Positions 15,934 through 49,757 of a DNA stretch of 64,000 bases are shown piece by piece; the first letter of the stretch is position 1, and each line of letters begins with the position of its first letter. The notes under the pieces were generated by a model. That model saw only the letters and a list, made by a program, of their open reading frames with translations. It made no database searches and was not told where the DNA came from. The translations under genes and the position numbers were made by a program. Source of the stretch: Bacteroidota bacterium (lineage in GTDB: Bacteria; Bacteroidota; Ignavibacteria; Ignavibacteriales; Ignavibacteriaceae); the NCBI GenBank assembly GCA_021815405.1, contig JAKAGV010000005.1:1-64000 (forward strand), given 5' to 3'.

Positions 15934-16000
15934 GTGAAATTGATATATGTTTTCTGATTTTTTAAATATGCTGACCTCAATTATTTTGTCTTGTGCATTT

Positions 16001-16035
16001 TCCCTCGCCCTTTGGGAGAGGGTTAAGGTGAGGGC
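16001..16035. repeat. Palindromic repeat supplying a ribosome binding site
   Basis: CCCTCGCCCTTTGGGAGAGGG is an imperfect palindrome followed by TTAAGGTGAGGGC, in the style of dispersed intergenic repeats. Its GGTGAGGG end sits about 7 bp before the next ATG at 16042 and can act as its Shine-Dalgarno sequence. A similar unit precedes the gene at 49812. Confidence 0.5.
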
Positions 16036-16041
16036 TTTGTA

Positions 16042-18463: not shown

Positions 18464-18477
18464 TTGCGGAGATGACA

Positions 18478-26584: not shown

Positions 26585-26644
26585 TTAATAAAAAAAGGTT
26601 TACGCAAATGATTTTTATTTCTACAACTTACAAACGGGCATTAG

Positions 26645-30138: not shown

Positions 30139-30172
30139 AAAATTTTTATTCATTTTAAAATAAGGTTATTGT

Positions 30173-30877: not shown

Positions 30878-30899
30878 ATAAAACAATAGAGATATTTTT

Positions 30900-33155: not shown

Positions 33156-33188
33156 TCTAATTATTGTTAATTATTTTGAAAGTATAAA

Positions 33189-33350
33189 TTGATAATTAAG
33201 TATATTCAGGATAATAAATATATACATGGTTCGGCAACGAAAAATGATTATAAATCAAATAAGATTAAGCCGGCAAATGAAGAAGCAGCTAAGCAATTTT
33301 TTGAGAAAACACTTAAACTTATTTCCGAATTAAAGATTGAGACAATTTAA
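33189..33350 (+). CDS. Small ORF (53 aa) between receiver genes
   Basis: A 53-residue frame from TTG at 33189 to a stop 2 bp before the next ATG. The product contains YIHGSATKNDYKSNKIKPAN and an amphipathic C-terminal helix (EAAKQFFEKTLKLISELKIE). No homologue or good ribosome binding site was identified. Its placement in the gap suggests a real gene. Confidence 0.35.
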   Translation: MIIKYIQDNKYIHGSATKNDYKSNKIKPANEEAAKQFFEKTLKLISELKIETI

Positions 33351-33351
33351 C

Positions 33352-35700
33352 ATGAACGAAAAAGAAAAAATATTGGTTTTTTGGCAAGAGCCTATACCTG
33401 CATTTTTACCCGATTATTTTGTCGAATCTAATATTCATTTAAGTCTATGTGAATTTTCTGAGAATGCAATACAAAGAATTAACAAAAATTATGATGGGAT
33501 ACTAATTTTATGTGAGTTGAACCGAAACGATAAAAATGAATCTATCAATATGCGGGATCTTTATGGAATTAAATTAGCACAATCATTACGGTTAAAGGGA
33601 ATAACTGCTCCAATTCTATTTACCTCCTTCTTATCCCGGAAGCAAGTTTATAATAACAAGCCTGAGCGTGAGATTATAAATACTATTGGGCATGATTTTA
33701 TTCAACTACCGGTTCACATCAATAAATTTATTGGGTCCGTAAAAAAAATAAAACCTCTAACCGATCTAGAGCTATATGATATTCAAAATTCATATTGTCG
33801 TAAAGATGGAATGATTCGAGAATTAACACACCGATTGAGTAACATAAAATATTTTGATTTTAAAATAAAAAGTAAAGAGGAAATTAAACTTGATATTGAG
33901 AAAGCTGTTTATAGTATTGCAGATTTATATAATGAAAATCCTAATATATTTTTAAACGGACTTTGGAATAAGCATTGTGAGGTAAATGAGAAAAATATAA
34001 ACGAAGTTATCAGTAAAATAGGGGCATATGGTGAAGATATAATTCGTGAAAAATCTCCGGTTTCAATTTCGGATGTTACTTCAAATAATAAAAGATGGGA
34101 ATTACTTTGGCTTGATGATGAAGCAAGCAGTGATCATAAGCTGATGTCTTATCTTAAAGAGAAACATGTAAAAGCTATTTTATGCTCTTCAGGTGAGGTT
34201 GCAGTAAAATATCTTGAGGAAGATTTTAGAAAAGACAATAAGGTAGGTGTTGTTCTAACTGATTACAGATTATATGAAATTGTAAATGAAGTTAAAGTAC
34301 ATCAAAAAATTCAAGGTTATACTTTTCTAAAAAATATTGCTGATAGCGGAAAAATGATTCGACTTGCTGCTTTATCCGCATTACCTAGAAAATTCTTGTT
34401 ACACAGTTTTAAGAATTTTAACATCAGAACTGAAATTTTCTCAAAGCGTGATTATCTCGAAGATGACAATACTATTAGAGTACTTTGTGATGAGCTAATT
34501 GAAATTGGAAATGAAAATGAGGAAGCAATCTTGCGTTTACCGCGTATTACTTCTGAATATTGGAAATTCTTTGAACCTTTCTATGCTTATCATCGCAACT
34601 CTAATGACTATTATAATAATGAAAATTACATTTCTGAAAAATCAAAAATATATTGCGAAGGTTTAATTCAAAACGATCATGAATATAAATTTCAACTAAC
34701 TGGTTATACGGTTGCATTGGGTAGGGATATGCCAACTACCGAAGCCAGAGAGAAAAATAATTCTAAGCTTAAAGATCAAAAAAGGAAAGGCGGAAAGAAA
34801 TACTCGATTGAAGAAAAGCTTTCAACATATAAAGACCCTTCCAAGGGAAAATATTTTGATGAGTTCATTAATAAAATGATATGTCGGAGGGTAGCTATAT
34901 GGTATACACAACATAATCCTTCTTACTCTTTAAGAGATGTTCATAGGATACTAAAAGGGAAGAATTACTTAGGTACCGAAACCGACCTCGCTGCCAAGAA
35001 TCAAATAAATACAAATCTTGCACTTAAATTATCAGAATTTCCATGGAATATGACTATTGAGGAGAAAAATTGGTTAGTTTATGAAATGAAAATGATTGGG
35101 ATTAATGAAAAGGAAAAGCAAGAAGACACTTTATTAGCATTTTTTTCTAACCAAATAGTTGGATGGTTAGAGCAACACGAAGAATTTTCAAAACTCTTTA
35201 GTAATAAAAGAATAAATACATTTGGTGAAGTAAGAAAAATTTTGAATCAAGTTGCAGTAAATATCCATGAACATCTTGGTATATTGGATTCATTGCTTAG
35301 TCTTGTAACGGCGTGTAAAACTGAGATATATAAAATTGCCCCTGCCGAAGAATATAGAACTGAAACTGTTCTATCATTTGAAAAATATCTTGAACTTTTA
35401 GTTAACAGGTTAAGAAGAATTAAAAAATTACCTGTTATCTCATCCTTAGCCAGCGATGATTGGGAAGAATTAAAATCAAGAATAACTAAAGAAGCCCTGA
35501 AGAAGCTTACTTCTATAAATGATAGACAAACCTTAGAAAGTATTGCTTGGCTCTTTTTTTACGAACTTAAGGAGAATAATAAAACATTCAGCAATGATAA
35601 TATTTATTTAAGCGAGTTATTTAAAGAATTTAACAAACAAAAATTCATTAACCCTTATATCGTTGGTGATGATGATTTGAAGATTTACCCCCAAAGTTGA
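33352..35700 (+). CDS. Double receiver-like protein with unknown C-terminal region
   Basis: ATG at 33352 is preferred; a TTG start 15 bp upstream overlaps the small ORF. The 782-residue product has a degenerate N-terminal receiver-like domain (about 5-135, lacking the acidic pair) and a second receiver with Asp255-Asp256 (LWLDDEAS), phosphoacceptor Asp304 (VVLTDYRL), AALSAL and a Lys in FSKRDYL. The remaining 400 residues are charged and helical (KKYSIEEKLSTYKD, RVAIWYTQHNPSYSLRDVHR) with no named domain. It ends the long signalling run and is followed by a 220-bp gap that probably holds a promoter for the next run. Confidence 0.75.
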   Translation: MNEKEKILVFWQEPIPAFLPDYFVESNIHLSLCEFSENAIQRINKNYDGILILCELNRNDKNESINMRDLYGIKLAQSLRLKGITAPILFTSFLSRKQVYNNKPEREIINTIGHDFIQLPVHINKFIGSVKKIKPLTDLELYDIQNSYCRKDGMIRELTHRLSNIKYFDFKIKSKEEIKLDIEKAVYSIADLYNENPNIFLNGLWNKHCEVNEKNINEVISKIGAYGEDIIREKSPVSISDVTSNNKRWELLWLDDEASSDHKLMSYLKEKHVKAILCSSGEVAVKYLEEDFRKDNKVGVVLTDYRLYEIVNEVKVHQKIQGYTFLKNIADSGKMIRLAALSALPRKFLLHSFKNFNIRTEIFSKRDYLEDDNTIRVLCDELIEIGNENEEAILRLPRITSEYWKFFEPFYAYHRNSNDYYNNENYISEKSKIYCEGLIQNDHEYKFQLTGYTVALGRDMPTTEAREKNNSKLKDQKRKGGKKYSIEEKLSTYKDPSKGKYFDEFINKMICRRVAIWYTQHNPSYSLRDVHRILKGKNYLGTETDLAAKNQINTNLALKLSEFPWNMTIEEKNWLVYEMKMIGINEKEKQEDTLLAFFSNQIVGWLEQHEEFSKLFSNKRINTFGEVRKILNQVAVNIHEHLGILDSLLSLVTACKTEIYKIAPAEEYRTETVLSFEKYLELLVNRLRRIKKLPVISSLASDDWEELKSRITKEALKKLTSINDRQTLESIAWLFFYELKENNKTFSNDNIYLSELFKEFNKQKFINPYIVGDDDLKIYPQS

Positions 35701-35922: not shown

Positions 35923-36255
35923 ATGTCATCTCTTAAACAAAATGAAATTCAATCTAAAATAAAAAAACTCCAAAATTATTTGTTTGAAAGTGAACTTACT
36001 TTGCCATTATTCGTTCGCTTTAGGACCCAGAAACAGAATTACATTTTCCAGGTAAACAAAATTATTGCTGATGATTCTTGTGGAGTTTCTATTTATAACG
36101 GTAATCCTGGTATTCCTATAAAACAATTCTTATGGGAAGAAATTACCGGAATCGATGCACTGTCGGACAGTAAAAGAAAACCTTTTTTTCTAAACGATCT
36201 TAACGAATCCGGCAAAAACAACCTAATAGAAGAAATGAATACTAACTATGCATAA
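35923..36255 (+). CDS. Small hypothetical protein at the head of the ubiquitin-like run
   Basis: A 110-residue protein, ATG preceded by AAAAAGGTTCTAT. It is predicted as helix, then strands (LPLFVRFRTQKQNYIFQVNK), then a short helix. No membrane segment. It opens the second same-strand run and ends 51 bp before the DUF932-like gene. No family is recognised. Confidence 0.55.
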   Translation: MSSLKQNEIQSKIKKLQNYLFESELTLPLFVRFRTQKQNYIFQVNKIIADDSCGVSIYNGNPGIPIKQFLWEEITGIDALSDSKRKPFFLNDLNESGKNNLIEEMNTNYA

Positions 36256-36306
36256 CTCATTTACGTTCTATATATGAGTGACAAAATAATTATAAATACA
36301 AATTAA

Positions 36307-37293
36307 ATGAATTCCATTACAAACATAAAGACCCCATATTTCAAAGTCTCTGCAATTGAGGAAGCGAATGAAGTTGTAAAAACTGTTCGGACTCAGGATA
36401 TATATGCCGAACCCAACAACATCCGCTTTTTACCGAGCGGTTGCCTTGAAGCGAATAACCACAGATTACCTCTTGCGGACATAGGCTTCCTAACTTTATG
36501 TCATTATCTCAATATACCTGTACAATACGGGTTGCGGATACCTATTGATTTGTTGACGACAAACGTTAACCGTTTGCTCAAAGAATCAAACAAAGAAATT
36601 CTTATTCGTGCTCAACTGTGGCCCGGGATGAAGCTAATGGCAATTACTTGTGTAACAAACGGGAAATACAGGGCATTCCCTTATAGAAATTTACTAAGCT
36701 CGCTTAGCTCCGTGCAAAAGGATTTAGAATATAACGTCGAAAGAATTATTATTTCGCCTTCGCTATTTCGTGCTGAGTTTACTATTGGTAAGGAATTGGA
36801 CGTTTTGCCTAATGATTTCTATAAGTTCGGGAGTGAAATAATTGCAAGTGAAAATGCCATGTTCCCATCTGTCTCAATTCGTTCTTATGTATTCAGGTTG
36901 GTTTGTACAAATGGATTAATATTACCGGATGTATACGATCATTTCTCTTTCAAGCCCATGCAAAACGTGCAAACTAATGATTTGACTTGTCTTTTAGGGA
37001 GCGCAATAAAAAGCACATGGAGCTCTTCCAAGAATATTAAGGAAGTTCTTAATTCGGTTGCTCAAAAAAAATTGAGCGAAGGTCACAGCTTTTGGTTATA
37101 CCAGCATATCCGGAATAAAGTACCGGCAGATACTCTGAAAAATTTTCAACCGGAGGTTTTAAGCAATAAAACATATTACGATGTACTCAACGAAGTAACT
37201 GCTCAATCGCATAATACCGTGAATATAATGCAGCAGCGCTATTTTCAATTACTCGGCGGTGAATTATTAAAATTACTTATAACTAAAAACTAA
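36307..37293 (+). CDS. DUF932-like protein
   Basis: A 328-residue soluble protein with the outline of plasmid and phage DUF932 proteins: an N-terminal region rich in strands, a catalytic-looking core around RAFPYRNLLSSL, and YVFRLVCTNGLILPD, similar to the CTNG motif common in that family. DUF932 proteins often travel with ThiF/E1-like and small modifier genes on plasmids (the PRTRC cassette), which fits this neighbourhood. Their biochemical role is not established. Confidence 0.5.
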   Translation: MNSITNIKTPYFKVSAIEEANEVVKTVRTQDIYAEPNNIRFLPSGCLEANNHRLPLADIGFLTLCHYLNIPVQYGLRIPIDLLTTNVNRLLKESNKEILIRAQLWPGMKLMAITCVTNGKYRAFPYRNLLSSLSSVQKDLEYNVERIIISPSLFRAEFTIGKELDVLPNDFYKFGSEIIASENAMFPSVSIRSYVFRLVCTNGLILPDVYDHFSFKPMQNVQTNDLTCLLGSAIKSTWSSSKNIKEVLNSVAQKKLSEGHSFWLYQHIRNKVPADTLKNFQPEVLSNKTYYDVLNEVTAQSHNTVNIMQQRYFQLLGGELLKLLITKN

Positions 37294-37325
37294 AAAAAGT
37301 GAATGGATGGAATGAGGTATACAAA

Positions 37326-38720
37326 ATGAAAAATTTTACAAAGTGCTTAGCCATTATAACTTTAATATTGTTTTTATATCCCGCAGCATCCATATGCCTG
37401 CAGTCAACTGATGTAAAAACGATAAACGGGCAGTCATCGCTTTATAGTCAAATTGATTCCGTGAATTCGTCTCGCCAAGTCTTCAATATTTATGACATTG
37501 ATGTTAGTAAATCAATGCTAAAAGATGGAATGTTTAGCTCTGCAAAATCGGCTCTAATTAATCATGTTAAAGAACTCCCTATCGGCATTCATGTCATCAT
37601 TGTAAAATTTGGATTGATGGCTGATGTAATCGTTAATAAAGAAATTAAAAACCAATCGGACAGGAATGATATCATCGAATCTATTCAGTGGCTTTCAGCA
37701 AATGAGAATTATACGCAATTTGATGAAATGGTGAAACAAACTAAACTTTTATGCTATGAGATTCAAAATCATTATAGTAATCCGCGAATAAAAGTTACTG
37801 TTATATCAGACGGTATTTCATCGCCGGATAAATCAATCGGTAAAACAGAATACAATCTTCAATCTATTGTTGCACAAACTTTGCCTTTACAAAATGGATT
37901 AAATGTTTATTTCATAAAATTAACTGCTGTTGATGTTCCTGCTGTAAATTTAGCATCTTCAGATAATAGCGGATTAAAAACACTTCTTATTCAGCCGAAG
38001 AATATTAATTCTGCTCTGGAGCAGATTGATAAAGATAATCGAATAAAAATAAATCATACAGATAAGAAAAGAATAACTAAAAGCTCAGATAATAATTCTT
38101 CTTATATGATTTATATAATTATATCTGCCTTCATTTTAATTCTTGTCATATTATTTGTACCTAAATCTTTAAAAAGTATTAAAATCTTTAGAGAACAACA
38201 AAAGCAGTTTAAAAATCGGATTAATAAGTTAACTTCCAATTCACCTTCTAATAATTCGTTCACAACTGAATATCTGAAGATTACCGAATTAAATAAAAAT
38301 TCGGAAGATAAAGAGAATAAAATCAGCCAGGAGAAATATTTTAAGCTTATCAATGGTTCAAGAATACTTGTAGGCAGTGATCCGTTAAAATGTGTTTTCA
38401 TTCCCAACTGTCAGCAAGTGCCGGCAGTTTTATTATCGGTGAAAATTAATGGAAACAAAATATTTCTATACAATGAAACTAAAGAACCTCTTACAATAAA
38501 TCAAAAGAAGTTAAGACCAAAGCATTTCTTCCAATATTCCGTTAAGGATGATATCTCTTTAGACTATAAAGGTATTGTTAGAATTGACCTTCTTGTAACC
38601 AGAGTATCTTCTCATAAGAAAAGGGAATCTGAGCAAGTTAAGAGAATTAGAGAATTAGCAAACATTAATCTAAATAAGACGAAAAATACTGAGTCAAAGC
38701 CTGTTAAAGGAGGGTTTTAA
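37326..38720 (+). CDS. Membrane-anchored vWA-domain protein
   Basis: The start is set at ATG 37326, which has GAGG about 10 bp upstream and opens a signal peptide (KCLAIITLILFLYPAASICL). Residues about 50-220 form a vWA domain with MIDAS residues DVSKS (59-63), Thr in NYTQFDE and Asp in VISDGISSP. A membrane helix (MIYIIISAFILILVILF, about 260-277) follows, then a 170-residue cytoplasmic tail with a beta-rich, possibly FHA-like part (GSRILVGSDPLKCVF). It could bind a partner outside the inner membrane and signal to the cytoplasmic machine. The next gene starts 1 bp after its stop. Confidence 0.8.
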   Translation: MKNFTKCLAIITLILFLYPAASICLQSTDVKTINGQSSLYSQIDSVNSSRQVFNIYDIDVSKSMLKDGMFSSAKSALINHVKELPIGIHVIIVKFGLMADVIVNKEIKNQSDRNDIIESIQWLSANENYTQFDEMVKQTKLLCYEIQNHYSNPRIKVTVISDGISSPDKSIGKTEYNLQSIVAQTLPLQNGLNVYFIKLTAVDVPAVNLASSDNSGLKTLLIQPKNINSALEQIDKDNRIKINHTDKKRITKSSDNNSSYMIYIIISAFILILVILFVPKSLKSIKIFREQQKQFKNRINKLTSNSPSNNSFTTEYLKITELNKNSEDKENKISQEKYFKLINGSRILVGSDPLKCVFIPNCQQVPAVLLSVKINGNKIFLYNETKEPLTINQKKLRPKHFFQYSVKDDISLDYKGIVRIDLLVTRVSSHKKRESEQVKRIRELANINLNKTKNTESKPVKGGF

Positions 38721-38721
38721 A

Positions 38722-41655
38722 ATGAATTATAATATAAATAAGAGAAAGATAATACATCATAATGTCGGAATATTTACTAATGGTTCCAATCAGAAGGATA
38801 TTGTATTACTTGTTCAATATAAGAACCGTGAGCTTGGTGTAGATAATGTTTTTATAAATTCCTTTGATACTGACGATACTATCATTTTTAATAATCTTCC
38901 GCAGCCTACTAATCCTGAGTTGCAAGGGAAAGGGTTTGCTACAGGTACTTTTCAACTGCTTAAACCGATTGGTACAAACACTGTCACTAAAATTAAAGAA
39001 GGTTTCTATCCTGGTAGGGCGGGATTTGGATCATTAAAGCAGCTTGGGATTGGTGGATCAGGTACAAAAGGAGTTGGGCAATCTCCCATGTCGGGTGCTG
39101 CCGCTTATGAATTCAATAAAGAGTTTTTAGAAACTCGTGTTGAAGAGGGTCTCAAAAGTTTTACCGAAAAAAGACATACAGATGCAGACACCGAGGGACA
39201 GCAAATTGTGAATGTTTGCATTAATCATGAATACGGCGGATCATCTGCTGGCGGCAGAGAAAAGTTCAATCTTATAAAAAGAGACAGCCATAAAAAATTA
39301 GGACTTGATGAATCCAATATAGAACTAATTATAGTTCCTGATACTGCGGATACCAAAGATTGGCTGCAGACCGCTTCCATATGTTTTAGCGGGATAGCTG
39401 AAATTAGTGCAGCAGCAACCGGTAAATTTTATATTATAAGTCAGCTTGCTTCAGACAGTGAACCCAGAATTTATTCTGTACCGCAAGGAAGAATTATTTT
39501 CATAGCAAATAATAATGATGCATTACATAAACCTCTGTCAACCGATAGAATGCGGCAATCTTCATTAATAGCAAATTTTGTTCATCTTTTTAGTTCAAGC
39601 GATTTTGGTTCACAGCTTATGAAAGAGTTAATTGATTTTGATGATGATGCCGAAACACAAACTATTAATGGCGAACCGCGTTGTGGAAAATCTCTCGGTA
39701 TGAGCTTTATTACATTGAACAGGGAGAGATTGATTAGACACCATGTTGCCAGAATAGAAGAACTTATATGCAATAGTCTCATGCAGGAAAAAACTAATGA
39801 TGAAATCAGCGCTCTTGCACAAGTGTTTTTCCGGCAATTGCGGTTACTTGAGGGAGAAAGCTTCAATCAGCATTCCGATACATTGCTGAAATACCCTCAC
39901 AATAATGGTTCAATAAAATTTGTTAGCCTTATAGCACGTAGTAGACAATTAATTACCCAAAATCTCAATGGTCATTCCGGTATTGAAGCTATAAAAGCAG
40001 CAAAAGCTTCTTTTCAACACTCTACTGAAATACTCCAGGAGTTTATCCCGGTAATTGGTGATAATGTCATTAATAGGAGGCAGGAATTAATAAACGAATT
40101 TGATAACAGACTTATAACAATTATTAAAAATAATGAGTTGGGTTTCCGCACCGCACTGGACTTTTGTGAAATTGTAACTGTGATGAATACGCAAGAAAAA
40201 AATTCTATTTCCGATGAAATAGTTGAATTGGAACATGAGCTTGAACAGCAGCATCAAGCGGTAAAACAATTTCAAGAAGAGTTATTTCCTCAGGTTGAAG
40301 GAAAGGGTCTTATATGGAGAACATTTAACCGTGATTATATTCGTCAAGTGGCTTCAAACGGATGTAATGCTGTGGCAAACTCTACTGAAATTGATTTAAG
40401 ACTTCAGGCGAAGCAGCAAGTATTACAAATATGTGATGAGTTAAATAAACATATAGCTGAGCGTATATCCGAACTTATTGAGATGTTAACTATTATTGAT
40501 AATTATCGTGTTTCCCAAAAGGAAATAGTAGACTATGAAGAAAATCTGGACGAAATATATGTTTGCCCTAACGGTCACTCTTTGATTACCAGGGATAATA
40601 TAACCGAATATTATGAAAGAGCACTTGCAACTGCTGTGGGTAAAGAGTTCGCTGAAGCTGAAAAGCAAATAGTAAACAATTCCCTTCATGTCTTTCATTC
40701 AAGACTTGAAAATCCATTTGATTTGAAAGAAAATCCGGAATGCTTTGAAGTACTCTCTGAGGTAGCCTTTGATAGGCTTAAAACTTTCATCAATAATTTA
40801 AATGTTTTCGATGAGCTTTTAAGGATAAGAAATATTGGAAGCGAAAGCTTGCGCAGCTACCTATTGGAACGTGCACGGGAGGCAGAACCGGCTCTAAGAC
40901 TTAAAGATAATGACATTCACGATAATCCGCAGCATTATATCAATATTATCGGAATTAAGGATGGAGCTTCAAATCCTATCGTAACTGAATTAAATACTTA
41001 CGGTACTCAACGACATCCGTATACTGCTATCGACACACAGGATCCTGATTCTATAGTTTTACTTTCACTTCGTTCTACTTTTCCCGTTTCTGATATGATT
41101 CCCTTTGATAATTGGAAGAAAGCATATTTTGAGACTGCTAAGGGAATGAAAGAAGAAAGATTTCATCGCGCTATGTGGAGACGATTTATTCCCTTACCGG
41201 GAAATAAATTAACATTATCTGATGTAAGAAGATATTTGGCGATGGCTTTTGTTATTGGCAGAGTTAGCTGTAGAACCCGTACTGAAGGTACAATACTTCA
41301 ATATTCTGAATTTGATATTACTCGTCCCAATGAAATCGAAGGTTGCAGAATAATTTCATTAGGAGGAAATATCCAAAATATATTAACATATTTCCAACAG
41401 CATTACGACCTGCTGGTTGAAATATTTTCCCTTTACTATGAGATAAATTATCAATTAAAAGGTCCTGAATTTATTGACAAAAAGCTTCTTGAACTTCAAT
41501 CTTTTGATGTCGAAGATAAATCTAGTCTTAACGGCTTGGTCCGTTCTTTAGTCGATGACGATACTATAGAAGAATTGTTTAAACAATTAGATTGGCTGGT
41601 TGATCAAACAACACCGCAGGCAATGTATTATTTCTCAAATAATAATCATAGCTAA
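38722..41655 (+). CDS. Large protein with possible tubulin-like domain
   Basis: A 977-residue protein with a very strong ribosome binding site (AAAGGAGGG). The N-terminal half contains glycine-rich loops (GIGGSGTKGVGQ at about 113; VNVCINHEYGGSSAGG near 165-178) in the order expected for tubulin-like proteins (PF13809-type), where GGTGSG binds GTP. The loop here is altered and the identification is tentative. A long helical middle section (about 330-650, including VELEHELEQQHQAVKQFQEE) suggests a coiled coil. It sits between the vWA and E2-like genes. If tubulin-like, it may polymerise or act as a nucleotide switch. Confidence 0.45.
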   Translation: MNYNINKRKIIHHNVGIFTNGSNQKDIVLLVQYKNRELGVDNVFINSFDTDDTIIFNNLPQPTNPELQGKGFATGTFQLLKPIGTNTVTKIKEGFYPGRAGFGSLKQLGIGGSGTKGVGQSPMSGAAAYEFNKEFLETRVEEGLKSFTEKRHTDADTEGQQIVNVCINHEYGGSSAGGREKFNLIKRDSHKKLGLDESNIELIIVPDTADTKDWLQTASICFSGIAEISAAATGKFYIISQLASDSEPRIYSVPQGRIIFIANNNDALHKPLSTDRMRQSSLIANFVHLFSSSDFGSQLMKELIDFDDDAETQTINGEPRCGKSLGMSFITLNRERLIRHHVARIEELICNSLMQEKTNDEISALAQVFFRQLRLLEGESFNQHSDTLLKYPHNNGSIKFVSLIARSRQLITQNLNGHSGIEAIKAAKASFQHSTEILQEFIPVIGDNVINRRQELINEFDNRLITIIKNNELGFRTALDFCEIVTVMNTQEKNSISDEIVELEHELEQQHQAVKQFQEELFPQVEGKGLIWRTFNRDYIRQVASNGCNAVANSTEIDLRLQAKQQVLQICDELNKHIAERISELIEMLTIIDNYRVSQKEIVDYEENLDEIYVCPNGHSLITRDNITEYYERALATAVGKEFAEAEKQIVNNSLHVFHSRLENPFDLKENPECFEVLSEVAFDRLKTFINNLNVFDELLRIRNIGSESLRSYLLERAREAEPALRLKDNDIHDNPQHYINIIGIKDGASNPIVTELNTYGTQRHPYTAIDTQDPDSIVLLSLRSTFPVSDMIPFDNWKKAYFETAKGMKEERFHRAMWRRFIPLPGNKLTLSDVRRYLAMAFVIGRVSCRTRTEGTILQYSEFDITRPNEIEGCRIISLGGNIQNILTYFQQHYDLLVEIFSLYYEINYQLKGPEFIDKKLLELQSFDVEDKSSLNGLVRSLVDDDTIEELFKQLDWLVDQTTPQAMYYFSNNNHS

Positions 41656-41659
41656 GAAT

Positions 41660-41968
41660 ATGATATTTATAACGGTAGTGTTATTGATAATAATCTTTTT
41701 TTCTTTAATTGCTTTCTTTATACGGATAGAAGGTAGTGAAATATCCGGTAGATCTCGAGGCATTGTTAAAAGGAAAAGCACCGAACTTAAACCTGGCAGA
41801 AATAGAGAAAAAATGTTATTTGCCAAAATATCAAAAGGAACAGCATTACGACACAACGGTAATGTTGTTTATGAACAGCCGTTGGATATCGCTCAAAATG
41901 GAAATAACAATGTGTTACCGCCTCCTGAGGAAATTCAAGGCATCAACAATGGAAACGAAATAATTTAA
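41660..41968 (+). CDS. Small single-pass membrane protein
   Basis: ATG at 41660 follows the previous stop by 4 bp. The 102-residue product has one N-terminal membrane helix (VVLLIIIFFSLIAFFI) and a basic, flexible cytoplasmic or periplasmic tail ending PPPEEIQGINNGNEII. No family is recognised. It could anchor the machine to the membrane with the vWA protein. Confidence 0.6.
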   Translation: MIFITVVLLIIIFFSLIAFFIRIEGSEISGRSRGIVKRKSTELKPGRNREKMLFAKISKGTALRHNGNVVYEQPLDIAQNGNNNVLPPPEEIQGINNGNEII

Positions 41969-41980
41969 CAGGAGCTTATT

Positions 41981-42430
41981 ATGAACGTAAAACAATTTAA
42001 CAATGATTTACGGATTCTGGAGCGTGAATTTAACCAGTCCGATAAATTCGGTAGGACCATCAAGCGAAACGTAAACTGGAAACCAAACGGAGATGGGAGC
42101 TATACTGTTTTTGTTCAAGGTGTAACACTTCCTGATAATGCTAATATGCCTAAGACAAATATCAAAATATATGCACCGGTAAATCTTTATGATTCTGCCG
42201 GCGGAAATAGAAAGTATTTTTATTCCAACATCTGGGTTGACCCGGGTATCAAAATCCGGCATCCAAATTCAGGCAAGTGGGGTAATTTGCCCCGGTTGTT
42301 TAAGCGAGACAGTGACGGCTTTGCTTACCTTTGCGTTCACCCGGATACGATTCAAGGTAACGAAAATATCCTTTTTTTTATTGCAACATTAAAAGTCTTT
42401 ATAAAAAACGCCGATCCTGACGTATGGTAA
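41981..42430 (+). CDS. Prokaryotic E2-like conjugating protein (putative)
   Basis: A 149-residue protein with an AGGAG ribosome binding site. Strands and landmarks fit the UBC/E2 fold: a strand with YTVFVQGVTLP, then IKIYAPVNLYDSAGG, a PN motif in RHPNSGKWG (His94-Pro95-Asn96) and Cys118 in GFAYLCVHPD, the position of the E2 active-site Cys. The HPN-to-Cys spacing (24 residues) is longer than in eukaryotic E2s but occurs in prokaryotic variants. It lies directly before the modifier and the JAB-E1 genes, the usual grouping for prokaryotic ubiquitin-like systems. Confidence 0.6.
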   Translation: MNVKQFNNDLRILEREFNQSDKFGRTIKRNVNWKPNGDGSYTVFVQGVTLPDNANMPKTNIKIYAPVNLYDSAGGNRKYFYSNIWVDPGIKIRHPNSGKWGNLPRLFKRDSDGFAYLCVHPDTIQGNENILFFIATLKVFIKNADPDVW

Positions 42431-42479
42431 AACAATATTAATTAACTAATACAAAAACTTAACTACAAGGAGTAACATC

Positions 42480-42680
42480 ATGGGAAAAGTAACTGTAAAC
42501 AACAAAGAGCTTGTAGCTCCGGCAAAAGAAATAAAAGTCAAGGAGCTAAAAGATTTAGCAGATCTGCCGGATAATTCAAAGCTATATGATAAAGATGGAA
42601 ATCTGCTTGATGATGAGCAAGTTGTACCTGCACAGGATGCCAAATATGGAAGTGTGCAAGAATGGGAAAGAGGATGTTAA
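42480..42680 (+). CDS. Ubiquitin-like modifier (Multiubiq-like) ending in Gly-Cys
   Basis: A 66-residue protein with an AAGGAG ribosome binding site. The order KVTVNNKELVAP, then KELKDLADLPDNSKLYDKDG matches the single repeat of Multiubiq domains (IN-x-x-x-y-x-x-P ... G-x-E-L-x-x-L-x-x-L-P ...). It is one domain, not a tandem array. The chain ends ...VQEWERGC, so the expected Gly-Gly tail is Gly65-Cys66 with no further residue. A neighbouring JAB-type protease may therefore act only to remove the modifier, and activation of a Cys-ended tail needs testing. A hairpin region of 170 bp separates it from the JAB-E1 gene. Confidence 0.6.
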   Translation: MGKVTVNNKELVAPAKEIKVKELKDLADLPDNSKLYDKDGNLLDDEQVVPAQDAKYGSVQEWERGC

Positions 42681-42705
42681 CTTTCAACAGATTCCTTTCC
42701 ATTTA

Positions 42706-42825
42706 ATAGTGCAAGCTGACTGAAATGTAATTTTCAAATTAATAACCTGTGGAAATCTTTTTGAATCCGTTTAATCAGTGTTACATTTTTCTAAAGATAA
42801 CTACTTTCAGTTAGCTTCTTAAAAT
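42706..42825. promoter_or_regulatory. Hairpin region between modifier and JAB-E1 genes
   Basis: AAGCTGACTGAAA near 42712 pairs with TTTCAGTTAGCTT near 42806, and an ATGTAA / TTACAT pair lies inside. The 170-bp gap also holds a copy of the dispersed ATCCGTTTAATCAG repeat. The hairpin may attenuate transcription and set a high modifier to enzyme ratio; no T run is present. Confidence 0.4.
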
Positions 42826-42852
42826 AGTGAATCAATAATTTGGAAAAAAATT

Positions 42853-44289
42853 ATGAAGACTAATATACTGGTATACCCTGAAGATTTATGGCTTGAGCAG
42901 GAACAGCATATCGCTGCTGTAGGTATTGAATCAATGGCATTTGGTTTTATTGGAATTAATATCTGTAATGATAAAAATGAATATCTTGTCTTTGATAATT
43001 ACCTTCCTGTTGATGATGAATTTTCCAAAAGAAGTATTGCCGGCATTTCTTTAAAGGTAGATTCAGTTTGTGCTATTCTTAAAAAAGTAAAACAGAGTTC
43101 CGGGCTTGCTGATGTTCATACGCATCCATCAGGATTGAGTCATTTTAGTTCGGTTGACAATTGTGGACACCAAATTCAAATGCAGAATGTATTTGATTTT
43201 TCACCTGATGGTGTTCTAATTCGTGTTGTAAAAGAGCGTAATAATTTCCGTGCTGAAGTTACTAATAAAGAGTTGCAGCCGGAATTTGAGCCAATAGATA
43301 TTATTAAGATAATCGGCGATAAAGGCTTTCATTTTATTTACCCGGTAAACAGCAGAGTTAAGAAGGAAGTCATAAATTCAAATATACTTGAGCAGCATAA
43401 ACGAACTTTGGAATTCTATAAGCAGGATGCCCTCTCGGCTATACGGAAATCAACTATCGGAATTATAGGTACTGGCGGGAATGGTGCTGCAATAATCAAT
43501 ACGCTTAAGTTCTTTCCCTTTAAGAAATGGGTATTGGTTGATAGAGATATAATTGAAGAACATAATTCAAATAGATTCTTTGGTTATAATTACGGTGATG
43601 CAGGTAAACAAAAGGTCGATATACTTAAAAGAGAGCTTCATCGTTTTGATCCTGCTATTGAAGTTGAAACAATCAATTCTAACTTTCCTGATGAAATTTC
43701 TGTCAAAGCACTCAAAGGCTGTGACATTCTTGTTGTTTCCCCGGATAACAATCTAGTCAGATATGCGGCATCTCAGTTTGCTATGAGATATTTAAAGCCT
43801 CTGCTGGAATTGGGTTCCGGTATTACAATGAAAAATGATCATATTACTGCTATTGGTTCCCAGGTCCGTTTCCAAATACCCTCAGGCAATGGTAAATGTA
43901 TTGTTTGTAACGGGCTTGATGTCAAAAGGTTGGAATCCGAAGAAATCAACGAGTATAAAAGAAATATAGGTTACATAACGGATACTGATGAAAGTCCCGG
44001 TTCTGTTGTTACAATTAATTCTATTGCGGCTTCTCTCGCTACCCATATACTTTTAGATTATTTCGGAAATTACATTCAACGTGATTCAATTCCTACATAT
44101 TTATCCTACGATGAAAAGAATCTAACATTAACAGATTTGTCCTCTGTATTCAAAAAGAATCCAGTATGCACAATTTGCGGCAGATATAGTGATAGTCTAT
44201 TTGGCAAAGGCGATATTCTTCCACCTAACCTTGAGGTCTTAGAGTGTGAAGAAGCCTCAGAAAATTTAATAGGCGGAGAACAGCTATGA
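42853..44289 (+). CDS. JAB (JAMM) protease - E1-like fusion
   Basis: A 478-residue fusion. The N-terminal JAB/MPN domain has Glu26 (GIESMAFGF) and the complete JAMM motif His89-x-His91-x(7)-Ser99-x(2)-Asp102 (VHTHPSGLSHFSSVDN), so the zinc deubiquitinase site is intact. From about 195 an E1/ThiF domain follows: nucleotide loop IIGTGGNGAAIINTL, VLVDRDIIEEHNSNR, and paired zinc cysteines KCIVC and CTICG. E1 activates the modifier tail by adenylation, and JAB removes or trims it. Fusing both is known in prokaryotic ubiquitin-like systems. The E1 catalytic Cys was not identified with confidence. Confidence 0.85.
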   Translation: MKTNILVYPEDLWLEQEQHIAAVGIESMAFGFIGINICNDKNEYLVFDNYLPVDDEFSKRSIAGISLKVDSVCAILKKVKQSSGLADVHTHPSGLSHFSSVDNCGHQIQMQNVFDFSPDGVLIRVVKERNNFRAEVTNKELQPEFEPIDIIKIIGDKGFHFIYPVNSRVKKEVINSNILEQHKRTLEFYKQDALSAIRKSTIGIIGTGGNGAAIINTLKFFPFKKWVLVDRDIIEEHNSNRFFGYNYGDAGKQKVDILKRELHRFDPAIEVETINSNFPDEISVKALKGCDILVVSPDNNLVRYAASQFAMRYLKPLLELGSGITMKNDHITAIGSQVRFQIPSGNGKCIVCNGLDVKRLESEEINEYKRNIGYITDTDESPGSVVTINSIAASLATHILLDYFGNYIQRDSIPTYLSYDEKNLTLTDLSSVFKKNPVCTICGRYSDSLFGKGDILPPNLEVLECEEASENLIGGEQL

Positions 44290-45575
44290 CGACATTTAAT
44301 AGGCAAAACTTAGCCAACCAAATTATACATGATATTGAGCGTCAAGGTCATTCTATAGTTGAAAAGGTTCAAATTAATAATAGGTTTTATAATAAAGACT
44401 CATGTTCAATTTGTTTTATCATTCAACAAAATGAGTACTATTCATTCATTGAACCTGATGTCAAGTATAATGGTAACGATAAGCTTGTTTCTTCTGTATT
44501 CACGCCGGAAATTAAAAAAGGCTGGCGGCAATTACTGATACCTCCATCAAACGATATTAATTATATCTTAGCTAATGTATTAAGCTTACTTGGAGTAGAT
44601 AACAAAGAACCTGTTGTGATATGGATGGAACAATTACGCAATAATGCCAATAAACTAAATTCAAATGCTCAACCTGTACATACCCGGTCTATTAAAGCAG
44701 ATAAACAGATAGATGAAATTGGGAAAAACAAAATTTCAATAGGCGAGGATCTTGTTAAGCTCGCAGAAGAAGGAAAGCTTGATGAGCCGTTTGGAAGGGA
44801 TGATATTATAGACTCCATTATTCAAGTCGTTTCCAAATCTAAAAAGAATTCATGCATTTTGCTCGGTGAACCTGGTGTTGGAAAGACGGCTGTCATCGAA
44901 GGACTTGCTATAAGAATTTATAAGCAAACAGTGCCGCCTACTTTACTTGATAAGCGAATATATTCAATCAACATGGGATACCTTGCTGCCGAATCTGAGT
45001 ACTACAATCAATTATTATCACGAATCAAATCTATTATAAACGAAGCTAAACGGGATGACCGGGTTATATTATTTATCGATGAAGCGCACATGCTTGCCGA
45101 TCCAAAGCATGATGTCTCTCAGATTTTAAAAGCTGATTTAGGAAGAAACCTACGTGTTATTGCAGCCACTACCAATAAAGAATATCAGAAGTACATTGCA
45201 CCTGATGAAGCCTTTGCAAGAAGGTTTCAGCGCATACCGGTTCCTGAATTAAGCCCCGAAGTTTGTCTCCAAGTATTGCAAAAAGCCAAAACAAAATATG
45301 AAAAGCACCATAACATAAATATTCCGGACGAACTTCTTCCTTGGATTATCAAATCAAGTATACGGTATGTTAAAGATAGAGTCCTTCCTGATAAAGCCTT
45401 GGATTTATTAGATGAGTCCTCTGCAAGACTAAAGCTTGCTGCTCTGAAAAAACAAAATGTAGTTGAAGAAGCTGCTGATATTAATAAACAAATTCAAAAT
45501 GCTATTGCACTTGGAGATTACAAGGAAGCAAGAAGACTCTACAACATACAGCATAATTTTACTGCAGAGAATTAA
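44286..45575 (+). CDS. ClpA/B-type AAA protein, first module (NBD1)
   Basis: A 429-residue protein starting inside the JAB-E1 stop. Residues 1-130 are a novel N-domain, not the Clp_N repeat. The AAA module (about 165-400) has Walker A GEPGVGKTA (194-202), Walker B VILFIDEAHM (about 260), sensor and Arg finger in AATTNKEYQKYIAPDEAF with ARRFQRI, and a short segment in place of the ClpB middle domain (RLKLAALKKQ to the end). It stops where ClpB would continue into NBD2, which is instead the next gene. Together they form one split unfoldase. Confidence 0.85.
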   Translation: MTTFNRQNLANQIIHDIERQGHSIVEKVQINNRFYNKDSCSICFIIQQNEYYSFIEPDVKYNGNDKLVSSVFTPEIKKGWRQLLIPPSNDINYILANVLSLLGVDNKEPVVIWMEQLRNNANKLNSNAQPVHTRSIKADKQIDEIGKNKISIGEDLVKLAEEGKLDEPFGRDDIIDSIIQVVSKSKKNSCILLGEPGVGKTAVIEGLAIRIYKQTVPPTLLDKRIYSINMGYLAAESEYYNQLLSRIKSIINEAKRDDRVILFIDEAHMLADPKHDVSQILKADLGRNLRVIAATTNKEYQKYIAPDEAFARRFQRIPVPELSPEVCLQVLQKAKTKYEKHHNINIPDELLPWIIKSSIRYVKDRVLPDKALDLLDESSARLKLAALKKQNVVEEAADINKQIQNAIALGDYKEARRLYNIQHNFTAEN

Positions 45576-45591
45576 TCAAGAGGTAAATATA

Positions 45592-46692
45592 ATGAATGAT
45601 ATACCCGCTCTTACAAAAAAAGAAGTAGTCGAAGTACTTGCAAGCTGGACCGGAATTCCTATTGATCGCCTGGACTCAAATTTTGCCAAAGAGGGAAACC
45701 TTAACCAGCTTGAAGAGAAATTAAAATCGGAAATATTTGGACAGAGTTATGCTATTGATGCTGCATGCAAAGCTCTCAAAAGAAGATTCATATTATCCGA
45801 GGCTTCGCAGAATGAGATGCGGCTGATTTCAACACTTATGTTTGTTGGAAGCTCTGGATGTGGTAAAACTGATTTAGCATTGCAGATTGCTGACAACTGT
45901 TTCGGTTCTGAAAAGAACTTAATACGCATCGATTGCGGCAATTATTCTGAAGAGCATAGCATTGCAAAATTAATTGGTTCCCCTCCGGGTTATGTAGGTT
46001 ACGCCGAGGGCGGGCAGCTTACGAATGCATTGAGGAAAAAATCATACGGAGTCATCTTGTTTGATGAAATTGAAAAAGCAAACCCCAAAGTAATTACTAA
46101 TATTCTAGTTCAGCTCGCTTCAAATGGTACTGTCACCGATGGAAATACAGGAAGTCTTATTGATGCGACAAATACAATTTTAATTTTGACATCCAACTTA
46201 GGTACATCATTTGAAAACGAACATAAGAAAGATATAGGCTTTACTTCGGAAAACATAAATATAAAAGATGAAAAACGTGAAAAGATACTTAGAGAAATTC
46301 ATAACTTTCTGCCAAATGAGATTATAGGTCGTATTGATGAAATTATAATTTTTAATGAACTTGATGAAGATTCAGTAAAAGCTATATGGAAGAAAGAAGT
46401 TAAAAAGCTCGAAGAAAAGCTAACCGGCTCTTCAGTAATTGGTAAACAGCTCAATGAAGTGCAAATTGAAATTAGTGAACTAGCGGAACAAATATTCATA
46501 TCAAAAGCAATGACAGGTATTGCTACACAAGGTGCACGTGCAGTTCAGCGAATATTTAATCGTTGGATTACCGATCAAATTACAGAAATGAAAGTCGAAA
46601 AAAGCATTCCCGGAAACGGTTCATACAAAATTGTTATAGATATAAATGATAATGAAGCTTTAACCTATACAGTAGTTTTGCAAGATCAGTAA
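45592..46692 (+). CDS. ClpA/B-type AAA protein, second module (NBD2)
   Basis: ATG at 45592 has AGAGG upstream; a longer frame overlapping the previous gene is not favoured. The 366-residue product begins with the ClpB-like linker motif (EVLASWTGIPIDRL), then Walker A GSSGCGKTD (86-94), the substrate pore loop GYVGYAEGG (about 133-141), Walker B GVILFDEIEKA and a C-terminal small domain with GARAVQRIFNRW. The pore tyrosine is kept, so it should thread and unfold proteins. No IGF/ClpP loop was noticed, so a link to a peptidase is not supported. Confidence 0.88.
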   Translation: MNDIPALTKKEVVEVLASWTGIPIDRLDSNFAKEGNLNQLEEKLKSEIFGQSYAIDAACKALKRRFILSEASQNEMRLISTLMFVGSSGCGKTDLALQIADNCFGSEKNLIRIDCGNYSEEHSIAKLIGSPPGYVGYAEGGQLTNALRKKSYGVILFDEIEKANPKVITNILVQLASNGTVTDGNTGSLIDATNTILILTSNLGTSFENEHKKDIGFTSENINIKDEKREKILREIHNFLPNEIIGRIDEIIIFNELDEDSVKAIWKKEVKKLEEKLTGSSVIGKQLNEVQIEISELAEQIFISKAMTGIATQGARAVQRIFNRWITDQITEMKVEKSIPGNGSYKIVIDINDNEALTYTVVLQDQ

Positions 46693-46726
46693 ATATTTTA
46701 TTATATAAGAATCTATTGTTTAAATT

Positions 46727-46939
46727 ATGTCGCAAACCTTAACAATACTTTTAATATTTTTCAGCTTTATTTTTATAGTAAGTAAAACTCTAAGAAAAAT
46801 TTTATTGTTTTTACTCAAATGGATAATTAAGCTTATAATAATTTTCGTAATAATTTTTCTAATTTTTTACTATCATTTAGAAATACTTAATTTCTTAAAT
46901 ACAACAATACATAATCTCCAAAAAATATTTCATCACTAA
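46727..46939 (+). CDS. Small two-helix membrane protein
   Basis: A 70-residue, highly hydrophobic protein with two membrane helices (ILLIFFSFIFIV and IIIFVIIFLIFYYH) and a basic turn between. It lies 34 bp after the split unfoldase. It may be the last gene of the run. Composition is so simple that chance coding cannot be excluded. The 358 bp that follow (46940-47297) show no gene and no strong structure. Confidence 0.45.
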   Translation: MSQTLTILLIFFSFIFIVSKTLRKILLFLLKWIIKLIIIFVIIFLIFYYHLEILNFLNTTIHNLQKIFHH

Positions 46940-48392: not shown

Positions 48393-48977
48393 ATGAAACT
48401 CGATTTCCAAATTTCCTTCGACAAAGCCCTTCCATCTGAAGGCTTGATTAGCAATAACAAATCCGATCACCGCGGCTTCACATACAAAGACATTTCCCGT
48501 GTCAAACATCCTGCATGGCCAGGCTGGGAAATAATCGGCAGCATTTATCGTAGCACAGACATTCAGTCTGTGCATCTACTTAATAAGAACACAGCTTTGC
48601 AAAACGAAGTCAAAGAATTTTACCGCACTGAATTCTGGAACAAGATCAAAGGAGATATTCTTCCCTCTCAACTAATCGCAGATGAGTTATTCGAAAGCTC
48701 AATTAATCTTGGCGTGCCGGTTGCTTCAGAATTCCTGCAATTGACAATCAACCTTCTCAACAGAAACGGAAACCTATACTCTGACATTAAAGTTGATGGA
48801 ATAATCGGCAACCAAACACTATCGGCACTAAACAAATGTATTTCAGCCAACGGCGAAAAAATTGCCTTCAATCTGCTCAACTTTTACCAGGCAAAACGTT
48901 ACATAGAAATTATGGAGCGTGACCGCACTCAAGAAATCTTCATCGGCTGGTTCTCCTGCATCGATATAATCAAATAA
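48393..48977 (+). CDS. GH108-type N-acetylmuramidase (endolysin-like)
   Basis: A 194-residue enzyme without signal peptide. Near the N-terminus FDKALPSEGLISNN gives the catalytic Glu, followed by a DHRGFTYKDISR segment in the place of the usual GGxTxxGI stretch. Later helices (FYRTEFWNKIKGDILPSQLI, FESSINLGVPVASEFLQL) and the C-terminal peptidoglycan-binding-like VDGIIGNQTLSALNK match phage GH108/zliS lysozymes. It would cleave the cell wall if given access through a holin. It sits between the holin-like gene and a membrane protein that could serve as a spanin. Confidence 0.85.
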   Translation: MKLDFQISFDKALPSEGLISNNKSDHRGFTYKDISRVKHPAWPGWEIIGSIYRSTDIQSVHLLNKNTALQNEVKEFYRTEFWNKIKGDILPSQLIADELFESSINLGVPVASEFLQLTINLLNRNGNLYSDIKVDGIIGNQTLSALNKCISANGEKIAFNLLNFYQAKRYIEIMERDRTQEIFIGWFSCIDIIK

Positions 48978-49006
48978 CTTATTGTTTTTGCCTTTGTGCT
49001 CTTGCA

Positions 49007-49183
49007 CCTTAAAAGAATTGCGCCCGGAAATTTTATTGTAGCGTAATGTCCGCAACAAAATCTGCCTGAGTCCGGTTCCTACCGGACGAGTTATTTTGTT
49101 GCAATGAAGCGGAAAGAAAATTTTAGCAATTATTTTAAAGTGCATGTTTCTTTGGGTACTTTTCTTACGCTAAGAAAAGTACA
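49007..49183. repeat. Dispersed hairpin repeat, copy 2
   Basis: Matches 12731-12950 with the same inverted arms (AAATTTTATTG / AGAAAATTTT, AACAAAAT / ATTTTGTT) but with a shorter inner part. It ends in a small hairpin, ACTTTTCTTACGCTAAGAAAAGT. The same unit occurs upstream of the AbiE genes and here between lysis-like genes. Confidence 0.75.
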
Positions 49184-49259
49184 TATAAAATCCTTTCTCA
49201 ATTCTACATTACATCCCAAAATTTCCATCCCTTTCTTTGCTTCAAAAAAAATAAAACTC

Positions 49260-49757
49260 ATGAACCAAAAAATTATTTATATCGTAAGCACAATCATTGC
49301 AATATCTGTCCTCTTTGTCCTATTCCGTCCTATAAAAAATACCACTCAGAATGAAGAGACAAAAACCGAAACAACCTATTCCACCGGGAAGACAGAGCAA
49401 CTATACAAAAAAGGCAAAGATTCTATTACAACAAAAACAAAATCTATCCACAACAAAATTATTCTTCATCTCTCTGCAGCAGATTCAACTTACAAATACT
49501 CAATTGCCGATAGCAGCTGCAATCTATCATTAAACATTCAGCCGGCTTCAGACGGAAATCTTTCAATGGATTATTTCCTTAATCTAACTTCAAAAGAATT
49601 GGTTCGGATCGACACAATTTATCAGCTTCGTGTCGACACACTAAAAATCAAACAAACAATTTCAGAAAGAATAGATCCGCCCTTTTACAACACCTTTTTA
49701 TTCGGCGCTGTTATAACGGGTACAGTTATTTTATTACTAACAATCTTAATTAGATAA
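49260..49757 (+). CDS. Membrane protein of the lysis-like cassette
   Basis: ATG at 49260 is chosen because the upstream frame runs through repeat sequence. The 165-residue product has an N-terminal membrane helix (IIYIVSTIIAISVLFVLF), a long hydrophilic region (about 30-135), and a C-terminal membrane helix (FLFGAVITGTVILLLTILIR). Two anchors with a periplasmic loop could span the envelope as a spanin does, but no family was recognised. Confidence 0.5.
   Translation: MNQKIIYIVSTIIAISVLFVLFRPIKNTTQNEETKTETTYSTGKTEQLYKKGKDSITTKTKSIHNKIILHLSAADSTYKYSIADSSCNLSLNIQPASDGNLSMDYFLNLTSKELVRIDTIYQLRVDTLKIKQTISERIDPPFYNTFLFGAVITGTVILLLTILIR

What the first reader, a model, noticed from the sequence alone, without database searches (positions are those of the whole stretch)
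35923..46939. Ubiquitin-like conjugation operon with vWA, tubulin-like and split unfoldase genes
On one strand: DUF932-like, membrane vWA, large possibly tubulin-like, small membrane, E2-like (Cys118), Multiubiq-like modifier, JAB-E1 fusion with intact JAMM, and both halves of a ClpA/B unfoldase. Known: JAB/E1/E2/Ub-like sets occur in bacteria, some as anti-phage systems. The combination with a vWA membrane anchor, a large GTPase-like protein and a dedicated unfoldase is new to me and suggests conjugation coupled to unfolding or remodelling at the membrane.
Basis: partly seen in the sequence, partly recalled or inferred. Interest (0 to 1): 0.9.

Follow-up and report, generated by a model that had tools for sequence, protein, structure and literature searches.

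The report
Bacterial ubiquitin-like operon with Clp unfoldase
A bacterial gene cluster appears to combine a ubiquitin-like protein-tagging kit with its own two-part protein-unfolding motor and probably membrane-linked partner genes, which, if they work together, would be a new bacterial parallel to ubiquitin-dependent protein degradation.

Summary
The operon is real: eleven same-strand genes at 35923-46939, gaps at most 51 bp except 172 bp before the JAB-E1 gene. Supported: JAB-E1 fusion with JAMM and adenylation residues, nearest solved relative Citrobacter BubCD; E2 fold for the 149-aa protein (pLDDT 80, best match Citrobacter BubB, Z 11.5); vWA with MIDAS motif; a two-gene ClpC-type unfoldase with both Walker sites, a ClpP-docking-like IGF loop and no Clp_N match, in a genome with ClpP. 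Not supported by sequence: the 66-aa modifier. Inconclusive: the tubulin-like claim for the 977-aa protein. Unusual: Bub-type E2s carry Ser-x-His (24 of 24 aligned; 85 of 87 loci by HMM) where this E2 has Cys118-x-His120. The full set was found nowhere else in what I could search. Best reading: a diverged Bub-related conjugation cassette with a dedicated ClpC-type unfoldase, probably tagging proteins for unfolding or degradation; the coupling is inferred from one locus. New variant of a known kind.

The parts
35923..36255 (+). 110-aa protein, unknown; first gene of the run
   Evidence: ORF; no Pfam match over cut-off, none in PHROGs at 0.5 (73) or NCBIfam at 10 (134)
36307..37293 (+). 328-aa protein, weakly DUF932-like
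   Evidence: PF06067 0.069; phrog_1362 2e-10 (73)
37299..38720 (+). vWA protein with MIDAS motif and hydrophobic stretches at residues 12-30 and 265-283
   Evidence: PF13519 6.7e-6; motif and hydropathy
38722..41655 (+). 977-aa protein, possibly a diverged tubulin-superfamily (FtsZl1-like) protein
   Evidence: No family match; weak core-motif match, hhalign not significant, model failed
41660..41968 (+). small protein with an N-terminal hydrophobic segment
   Evidence: Start read by eye; hydropathy
41981..42430 (+). 149-aa E2-fold protein, Cys118-x-His120
   Evidence: AF2 model, BubB best match, 0 of 200 shuffles as high
42480..42680 (+). 66-aa candidate ubiquitin-like modifier ending Gly65-Cys66
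   Evidence: Position between E2 and JAB-E1 (1); no sequence support
42853..44289 (+). JAB (JAMM) - E1 (ThiF) fusion, BubCD-like
   Evidence: PF00899 8.2e-28 (4); BubCD 3.3e-15 (72); conserved residues
44286..45575 (+). ClpC-type D1 half with unmatched N-terminal 150 residues
   Evidence: ClpC 7e-56 over residues 151-404 (110); no match for the first 150 (121)
45592..46692 (+). ClpC-type D2 half with IGF (ClpP-docking-like) loop
   Evidence: ClpC 1.2e-60 (109); ATG and AGAGG-like site before it read by eye
46727..46939 (+). 70-aa hydrophobic protein, last gene of the run
   Evidence: ORF (1); no Pfam match

Best explanation
A diverged relative of the Bub (bacterial ubiquitination-like) conjugation cassette that has its own ClpC-type unfoldase. 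Proposed cycle: the JAB domain trims the 66-aa modifier after Gly65 (inferred); the ThiF domain adenylates its C-terminus (residues shown, activity inferred); the modifier passes to Cys118 of the E2-fold protein as a thioester, at the place where Bub E2s have a serine (motif shown, chemistry inferred), then to a target. The tagged target is bound by the unique N-terminal domain of the two-chain ClpC ring (inferred), threaded, and handed to host ClpP through the IGF loop (motif and host ClpP shown, docking inferred), while the JAB domain recycles the modifier. The vWA and 977-aa proteins would hold the machine at the membrane or sense a signal there (inferred). Purpose probably defence or stress response, by analogy only. 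Taken apart: Bub-related cassette plus unfoldase about 0.8; unfolding or degradation of tagged targets about 0.35.
For: JAB-E1 homology to BubCD and conserved residues; E2 fold nearest to BubB, with 0 of 200 shuffles as high in a profile comparison; C-x-H starts 32 residues from the C-terminus, S-x-H of the 24 aligned Bub-type E2s 27-41; JAB-E1 and the Clp N half overlap by 4 bp; both AAA+ modules, GYVGY pore loop and IGF loop like ClpC; no Clp_N match; ClpP in the genome; precedent for Ubl conjugation genes with vWA and AAA+ chaperones (FtsH ternary systems, PMC7159879 section 21).
Against: No second copy of the full set was found, so the coupling rests on one locus. The modifier has no sequence support. 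The E2 model used Bub-type rows, so closeness to BubB is partly built in; the profile match covers residues 32-83 only, not the Cys, and a full-length profile alignment is poor (P 0.057); the window E2 hits no Pfam E2 family. The IGF loop is a motif, not an assay. The JAB-E1 is a very long branch (3.14 against a median 0.34), so its function may have shifted.
Confidence: 0.42

Rival explanations
1. Two neighbouring systems: a membrane module of vWA and the 977-aa protein (36307-41968), and a Bub-like cassette with a Clp unfoldase (41981-46692), which merely share an island.
For: vWA plus FtsZ-like genes form systems without ubiquitin parts (PMC2875224); 0 of 14 Chloroflexota Tubulin_2 neighbourhoods had E2, Ubl or JAB-E1 hits; the region lies between copies of a 98-nt repeat.
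Against: E2 and modifier lie 12 and 49 bp behind the membrane genes, while the largest gap (172 bp) falls inside the conjugation cassette. The neighbourhood test is insensitive: it did not detect vWA genes by phmmer either.
Confidence: 0.25
2. The modification itself is the effect, as for Bil tagging of phage structural proteins (recalled); the Clp ring only frees or refolds proteins and no ClpP-dependent degradation takes place.
For: Bil and Bub sets work without a linked unfoldase gene (no relative of the window's Clp halves under E 0.01 in the loci compared); Bub has not been shown to protect against phage (PMC13373217 passages).
Against: The unfoldase keeps the IGF loop aligned with the VGF of ClpC and the host has ClpP.
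Confidence: 0.2
3. The ThiF protein modifies a small peptide or carries sulphur, as MccB or ThiF do, and there is no protein conjugation.
For: MccB is among the best solved matches (2.4e-13); the 66-aa protein is not a recognisable Ubl.
Against: BubCD matches better (3.3e-15), a JAMM and an E2-fold protein stand beside it.
Confidence: 0.07
4. The unfoldase is one gene and its split is a sequencing or assembly indel, so 'split unfoldase' is not a feature.
For: The two frames overlap (45463-45575) and the genome is a draft of 31 contigs.
Against: The C half has its own ATG with an AGAGG-like site 16 bp after the first stop, the frame change would need +1, and the break lies in a linker.
Confidence: 0.25

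Closest known systems
Bub (bacterial ubiquitination-like) operons: BubA, BubB, BubCD; class 6e of Iyer 2006
   Same: JAB-E1 fusion homologous to BubCD; E2 fold nearest to BubB; genes adjacent
   Different: E2 is C-x-H not S-x-H and is not hit by PF14462, which hits 24 of 24 partners; modifier not recognisable; order E2-modifier-E1; added ClpC-type, vWA and 977-aa genes; no DUF6527 seen among the genes scanned
Class 6d of Iyer 2006 (Ubl, JAB, E1, E2, alpha-helical protein)
   Same: E2 with a Cys and a His downstream of it (passage)
   Different: There JAB and E1 are listed as separate proteins; no member was compared here
FtsH ternary systems with Ubl conjugation (PMC7159879 section 21)
   Same: vWA, AAA+ chaperones and a Ubl/E2/E1/JAB set in one operon
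   Different: They have MoxR and FtsH, a RING protein, an EAD1-fused Ubl and a caspase-like effector; here a ClpC-type motor and none of these was seen
FtsZl1/Tubulin_2 with vWA (PMC2875224)
   Same: About 1000-aa protein beside a vWA gene (15, 23)
   Different: No PF13809 match, degenerate loop GGSSAGG, ubiquitin parts beside it
ClpC
   Same: D1 and D2, pore loop, docking-like loop (109, 110)
   Different: Two genes, no Clp_N match

Membership tests
Bub operon | JAB (JAMM) and E1 (ThiF) fused, BubCD-like | tested here: met
   BubCD 3.3e-15 (72); residues
Bub operon | E2-fold protein like BubB | tested here: met
   Fold: Foldseek prob 1.00, Z 11.5; caveat that the rows were BubB relatives
Bub operon | E2 of Pfam Prok-E2_E with S-x-H | tested here: not met
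   24 of 25 members of A3 match PF14462, the window E2 does not; it has C-x-H
Bub operon | Multi-ubiquitin or BubA-type Ubl | tested here: inconclusive
   66-aa gene in place, no sequence match; no fold made
FtsZl1 / Tubulin_2 | PF13809 match and GGGTG(S/T)G loop | tested here: not met
   No match at E 10 in the genome; loop GGSSAGG
FtsZl1 / Tubulin_2 | Tubulin-superfamily fold | tested here: inconclusive
   AF2 pLDDT 34.8 (103); core HMM 1 of 1000 shuffles as high but 40 of 1110 real ORFs as high; hhalign 34 of 200 shuffles as high
FtsZl1 / Tubulin_2 | Adjacent vWA gene with MIDAS | tested here: met
   37299-38720 (4, 93)
ClpC unfoldase | D1 and D2 AAA+ modules with Walker A and B | tested here: met
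   93, 109, 110
ClpC unfoldase | ClpP-docking loop (VGF/IGF) | tested here: met
   IGF aligned with VGF of ClpC; docking itself not testable here
ClpC unfoldase | N-terminal Clp_N repeats, single chain | tested here: not met
   No Pfam match in the first 150 residues; two genes
PRTRC / class 6d | Separate JAB and E1, E2 with Cys and His, short Ubl | tested here: inconclusive
   C-x-H fits the text, JAB is fused to E1, no NCBIfam model matched E2 or the 66-aa protein; no member sequence was compared
FtsH ternary systems | MoxR-vWA pair with FtsH-type third component | tested here: not met
   The AAA+ genes of the run are Clp-type (4, 11)
Functional conjugation system | Covalent modifier adducts on targets | not testable with these tools
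   Needs biochemistry

The most novel reading that the evidence does not exclude
A self-contained bacterial pathway like ubiquitin-dependent degradation: a thioester (Cys) version of the Bub cascade whose tag is read by a dedicated two-chain ClpC ring that delivers tagged proteins to ClpP, organised at the membrane by a vWA protein and a highly diverged tubulin-superfamily protein.
Probability: 0.15. Interest if true: 0.92.

Novelty: new variant of a known kind. Interest (0 to 1): 0.64.

Why it matters
Bub and Bil systems conjugate ubiquitin-like proteins in bacteria; I know of none with a dedicated Clp-type unfoldase (from memory; the paper listings showed none, but the main Bub papers are not held). 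If the tag here feeds a ClpC ring, it would parallel the ubiquitin-proteasome logic with bacterial parts. It also offers a natural Ser-to-Cys exchange at the presumed E2 active site of a Bub-like cascade, which is directly testable.

Tried and rejected
Relatives of the 977-aa protein: none in 40 other relatives, in 394 other phylum genomes, in viral contigs (a 233-residue part) or in plasmids at 1e-5; one plasmid region at E 8 (24) was judged chance from its ORF layout and gave E 8e-4 then 0.016 in small local searches, where nothing else of the operon was near; genome contigs with six exact 8-residue patterns gave 29 stretches, none a relative; 46 genomes behind 48 of the 80 loci (one handle not held, two loci in one genome) gave 5 hits, the best E 0.009, which a local tblastn did not reproduce. 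Relatives of the JAB-E1: best outside the own genome 27% identity among 394 others, none at 1e-20 in 244 others, none at 1e-15 in 163 others, 6 of 169 at 1e-15 in another phylum, the top one (24% identity) being Bub-type on its 5-kb contig; a second contig was only listed. These samples overlap in part. The JAB-E1 profile in viral contigs gave 3 loci of 26-32% identity, neighbourhoods not opened further than the ORF search. E2 and vWA: no plasmid match; E2: no viral match. Window proteins against the ORFs of the fetched loci: only JAB-E1 hit clearly; single hits at 0.016-0.049 for DUF932-like, 977-aa, E2 (L042) and the Clp halves; a diverged vWA could be missed by this.

Left open or dropped: the Multiubiq label (46 of 200 shuffles as high, 78; 1409 of 5000, and 122 of 4269 real small ORFs). 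The tubulin label: core HMM 3.4 bits, 1 of 1000 shuffles as high, but 40 of 1110 real ORFs as high, 35 of them JAB-E1/ThiF proteins whose glycine loop matches, and one real ORF spans both motifs at the same score. L087, a cyanobacterial JAB-E1 with a Cys-bearing E2 candidate, joins the window in the tree, but both are long branches and the E2s are no more alike than shuffles (591 of 2000 as high). Three further long-branch loci opened wider (L163-L165) matched only by JAB-E1. That Bub modifiers end in Cys was a recollection and was dropped: the solved BubA construct ends in Gly (125). That Bub works through serine oxyesters is recalled, not read. A comparison with PRTRC was tried through plasmid ThiF hits, but the three neighbourhoods opened were Bub-type. 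VIA-align rows at Z about 8 are not taken as evidence of function.
Full report
What is there. The finding's ORFs exist as stated. From 36307 to 42680 six genes follow each other with gaps of at most 49 bp; then come a 172-bp gap, the JAB-E1 gene, the two Clp halves (4-bp overlap, 16-bp gap) and a 70-aa hydrophobic gene. The stretch lies between two copies of a 98-nt repeat, 98% identical, at 12812 and 49068 (86); the same genome has a third copy (94%) and a partial one on another contig (92), so the region may be an accessory island.

JAB-E1. The 478-aa protein has a ThiF domain (8.2e-28); Pfam's Prok-JAB is under its cut-off (0.023). In an alignment of ten JAB-E1 proteins E26, H89, H91 and G206, G209, G211, D230, N238, R241, K254, D298, R303 are the same in 10 of 10, S99 and D102 in 9 of 10. 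The best solved matches are Citrobacter BubCD (3.3e-15), then MccB (2.4e-13). In a tree of 85 rows the window's branch is 3.14 long against a median of 0.34, its highest identity 26%, and the row it joins (L087) is also long, so its place is unsure.

E2. The 149-aa protein matches no family by sequence. Folded with 24 E2-like neighbours of other JAB-E1 genes, which I chose by place and length from 82 loci, it gives pLDDT 80.4 and pTM 0.74. Foldseek's best match is BubB (9eae_C, probability 1.00, E 6.1e-3; none under 0.001), then eukaryotic E2s. VIA-align gives Z 11.5 for BubB (rmsd 3.0, 120 aligned), then UEV and E2 structures at 8.8 and below. The rows are BubB relatives (A3 finds BubB at 1.7e-30), so closeness to BubB is partly built in. 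An independent check: the window sequence against a profile of 27 such E2s scores 26.7, above all 200 shuffles (highest 19.2), over residues 32-83; forced full-length, the alignment is poor. All 24 partner E2s have Ser-x-His, and by HMM 85 of 87 loci with a Bub-type E2 match have it near the end of the ORF; the two others are a match inside a longer ORF (L058) and FSWSH (L030). The window has Cys118-Val-His120, 32 residues from its end against 27-41. In the alignment His120 meets an invariant His; the Ser stands in the column of Cys118 in 8 of 24 rows and two columns later in a gap of the window in the rest, so the equivalence is by distance to the His. Iyer 2006 describes class 6d E2s with a Cys and a conserved His after it, and class 6e with a JAB-E1 fusion and a Cys-less E2 (passages); the window mixes the two. 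L087 has a Cys-bearing E2 candidate beside a JAB-E1 fusion, without the His (138).

Modifier. The 66-aa protein sits between E2 and E1 and ends ERGC. Against 14 Bub-type Ubls it is no better than shuffles and it matches nothing else. It is a candidate by place only. If real, Gly65 would be exposed by removing one residue (inference).

Unfoldase. The N half (429 aa) matches ClpC D1 (7e-56, residues 151-404); its first 150 residues match no Pfam family (121). The C half (366 aa from ATG 45592) matches ClpC D2 (1.2e-60), keeps GYVGY and both Walker motifs, and has IGF aligned with the VGF of ClpC, the ClpP-docking loop by established knowledge. ClpP is encoded elsewhere in the genome (1.9e-81). 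The break lies in the linker; a frameshift error cannot be excluded.

Membrane side. The vWA protein has DVSKS and hydrophobic stretches at 12-30 and 265-283 (93), so its vWA part may face outward (inference). The 977-aa protein is unresolved. PF13809 was not detected at E 10 (25), AF2 on one sequence failed (pLDDT 34.8), hhalign to Tubulin_2 proteins was not significant (34 of 200 shuffles as high). A core HMM of 11 such proteins aligned the T3 and T4 region in order at 3.4 bits, reached by 1 of 1000 shuffles, but also by 40 of 1110 real ORFs, 35 of them JAB-E1/ThiF proteins, one of which spans both motifs. Neighbourhood of a vWA gene and length fit FtsZl1 systems (PMC2875224, parts 1 and 2 of 5 read; no mention of ubiquitin or Clp found in it); the loop GGSSAGG does not fit.

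Occurrence. The full set was not found in the samples searched. Rarity is likely, uniqueness is not shown. The smaller set of Ubl, E2 and JAB-E1, often with DUF6527 in annotated plasmids, is common.

Known systems. A 2026 paper names 544 Bub operons and says protection against phage is not shown (PMC13373217, passages). vWA-MoxR-FtsH systems with full Ubl conjugation are described (PMC7159879 section 21), and tubulin with vWA in GAP1-N2 systems (section 29). In the sections and passages I saw, none joins a BubCD-like enzyme to a ClpC-type motor. The main Bub papers (Ye 2026, Gong 2025) are known to me only from that paper's reference list; they are not held.

Verdict. The likeliest reading is a diverged Bub-related cassette with a private ClpC-type unfoldase, acting on tagged proteins near the membrane. 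Cassette and motor are well supported; their coupling and the role of the membrane genes are inferred from one locus. The organism was not told and I did not determine it.

Noticed in passing
window 12812-12909 and 49068-49165; contig C30 at 168433 (L144): 98-nt repeat (98% and 94% identical copies) beside a GH108/PG_binding_3 gene cassette (48393-49757) that has a paralogue on C30, near genes that look by eye like type III restriction-modification and TIR. Possible island boundary or insertion hot spot.
   Followed up: partly
window 20525-35700: Upstream run: radical SAM-SPASM protein, 1410-aa unknown, receiver plus TrwB/HerA-like ATPase (27409-30138), receiver protein with a sub-cut-off iREC match (30900-33155), 787-aa protein. 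May be a separate conflict system.
   Followed up: no
L087:5728-7992: Cyanobacterial JAB-E1 fusion preceded by a 160-aa E2-like candidate with a Cys (WYWYCVG) instead of S-x-H, upstream of genes that look by eye like a type III CRISPR set; joins the window in the tree, but both are long branches.
   Followed up: partly
window 13796-14740 and 50516-51649: AbiEii-family protein and a Fic protein on either side of the region.
   Followed up: no
window 15064-19602: Branched-chain amino-acid type ABC transporter genes and periplasmic binding protein between the flanking repeat and the operon.
   Followed up: no
L003:11269-23616: On a Bradyrhizobium plasmid a Bub-type set stands a few genes from a CBASS set with its own ThiF gene.
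   Followed up: no
L146-L159: Chloroflexota Tubulin_2 genes often stand beside other 800-1150-aa ORFs in a row; no ubiquitin-type hit in 0 of 14 stretches.
   Followed up: partly
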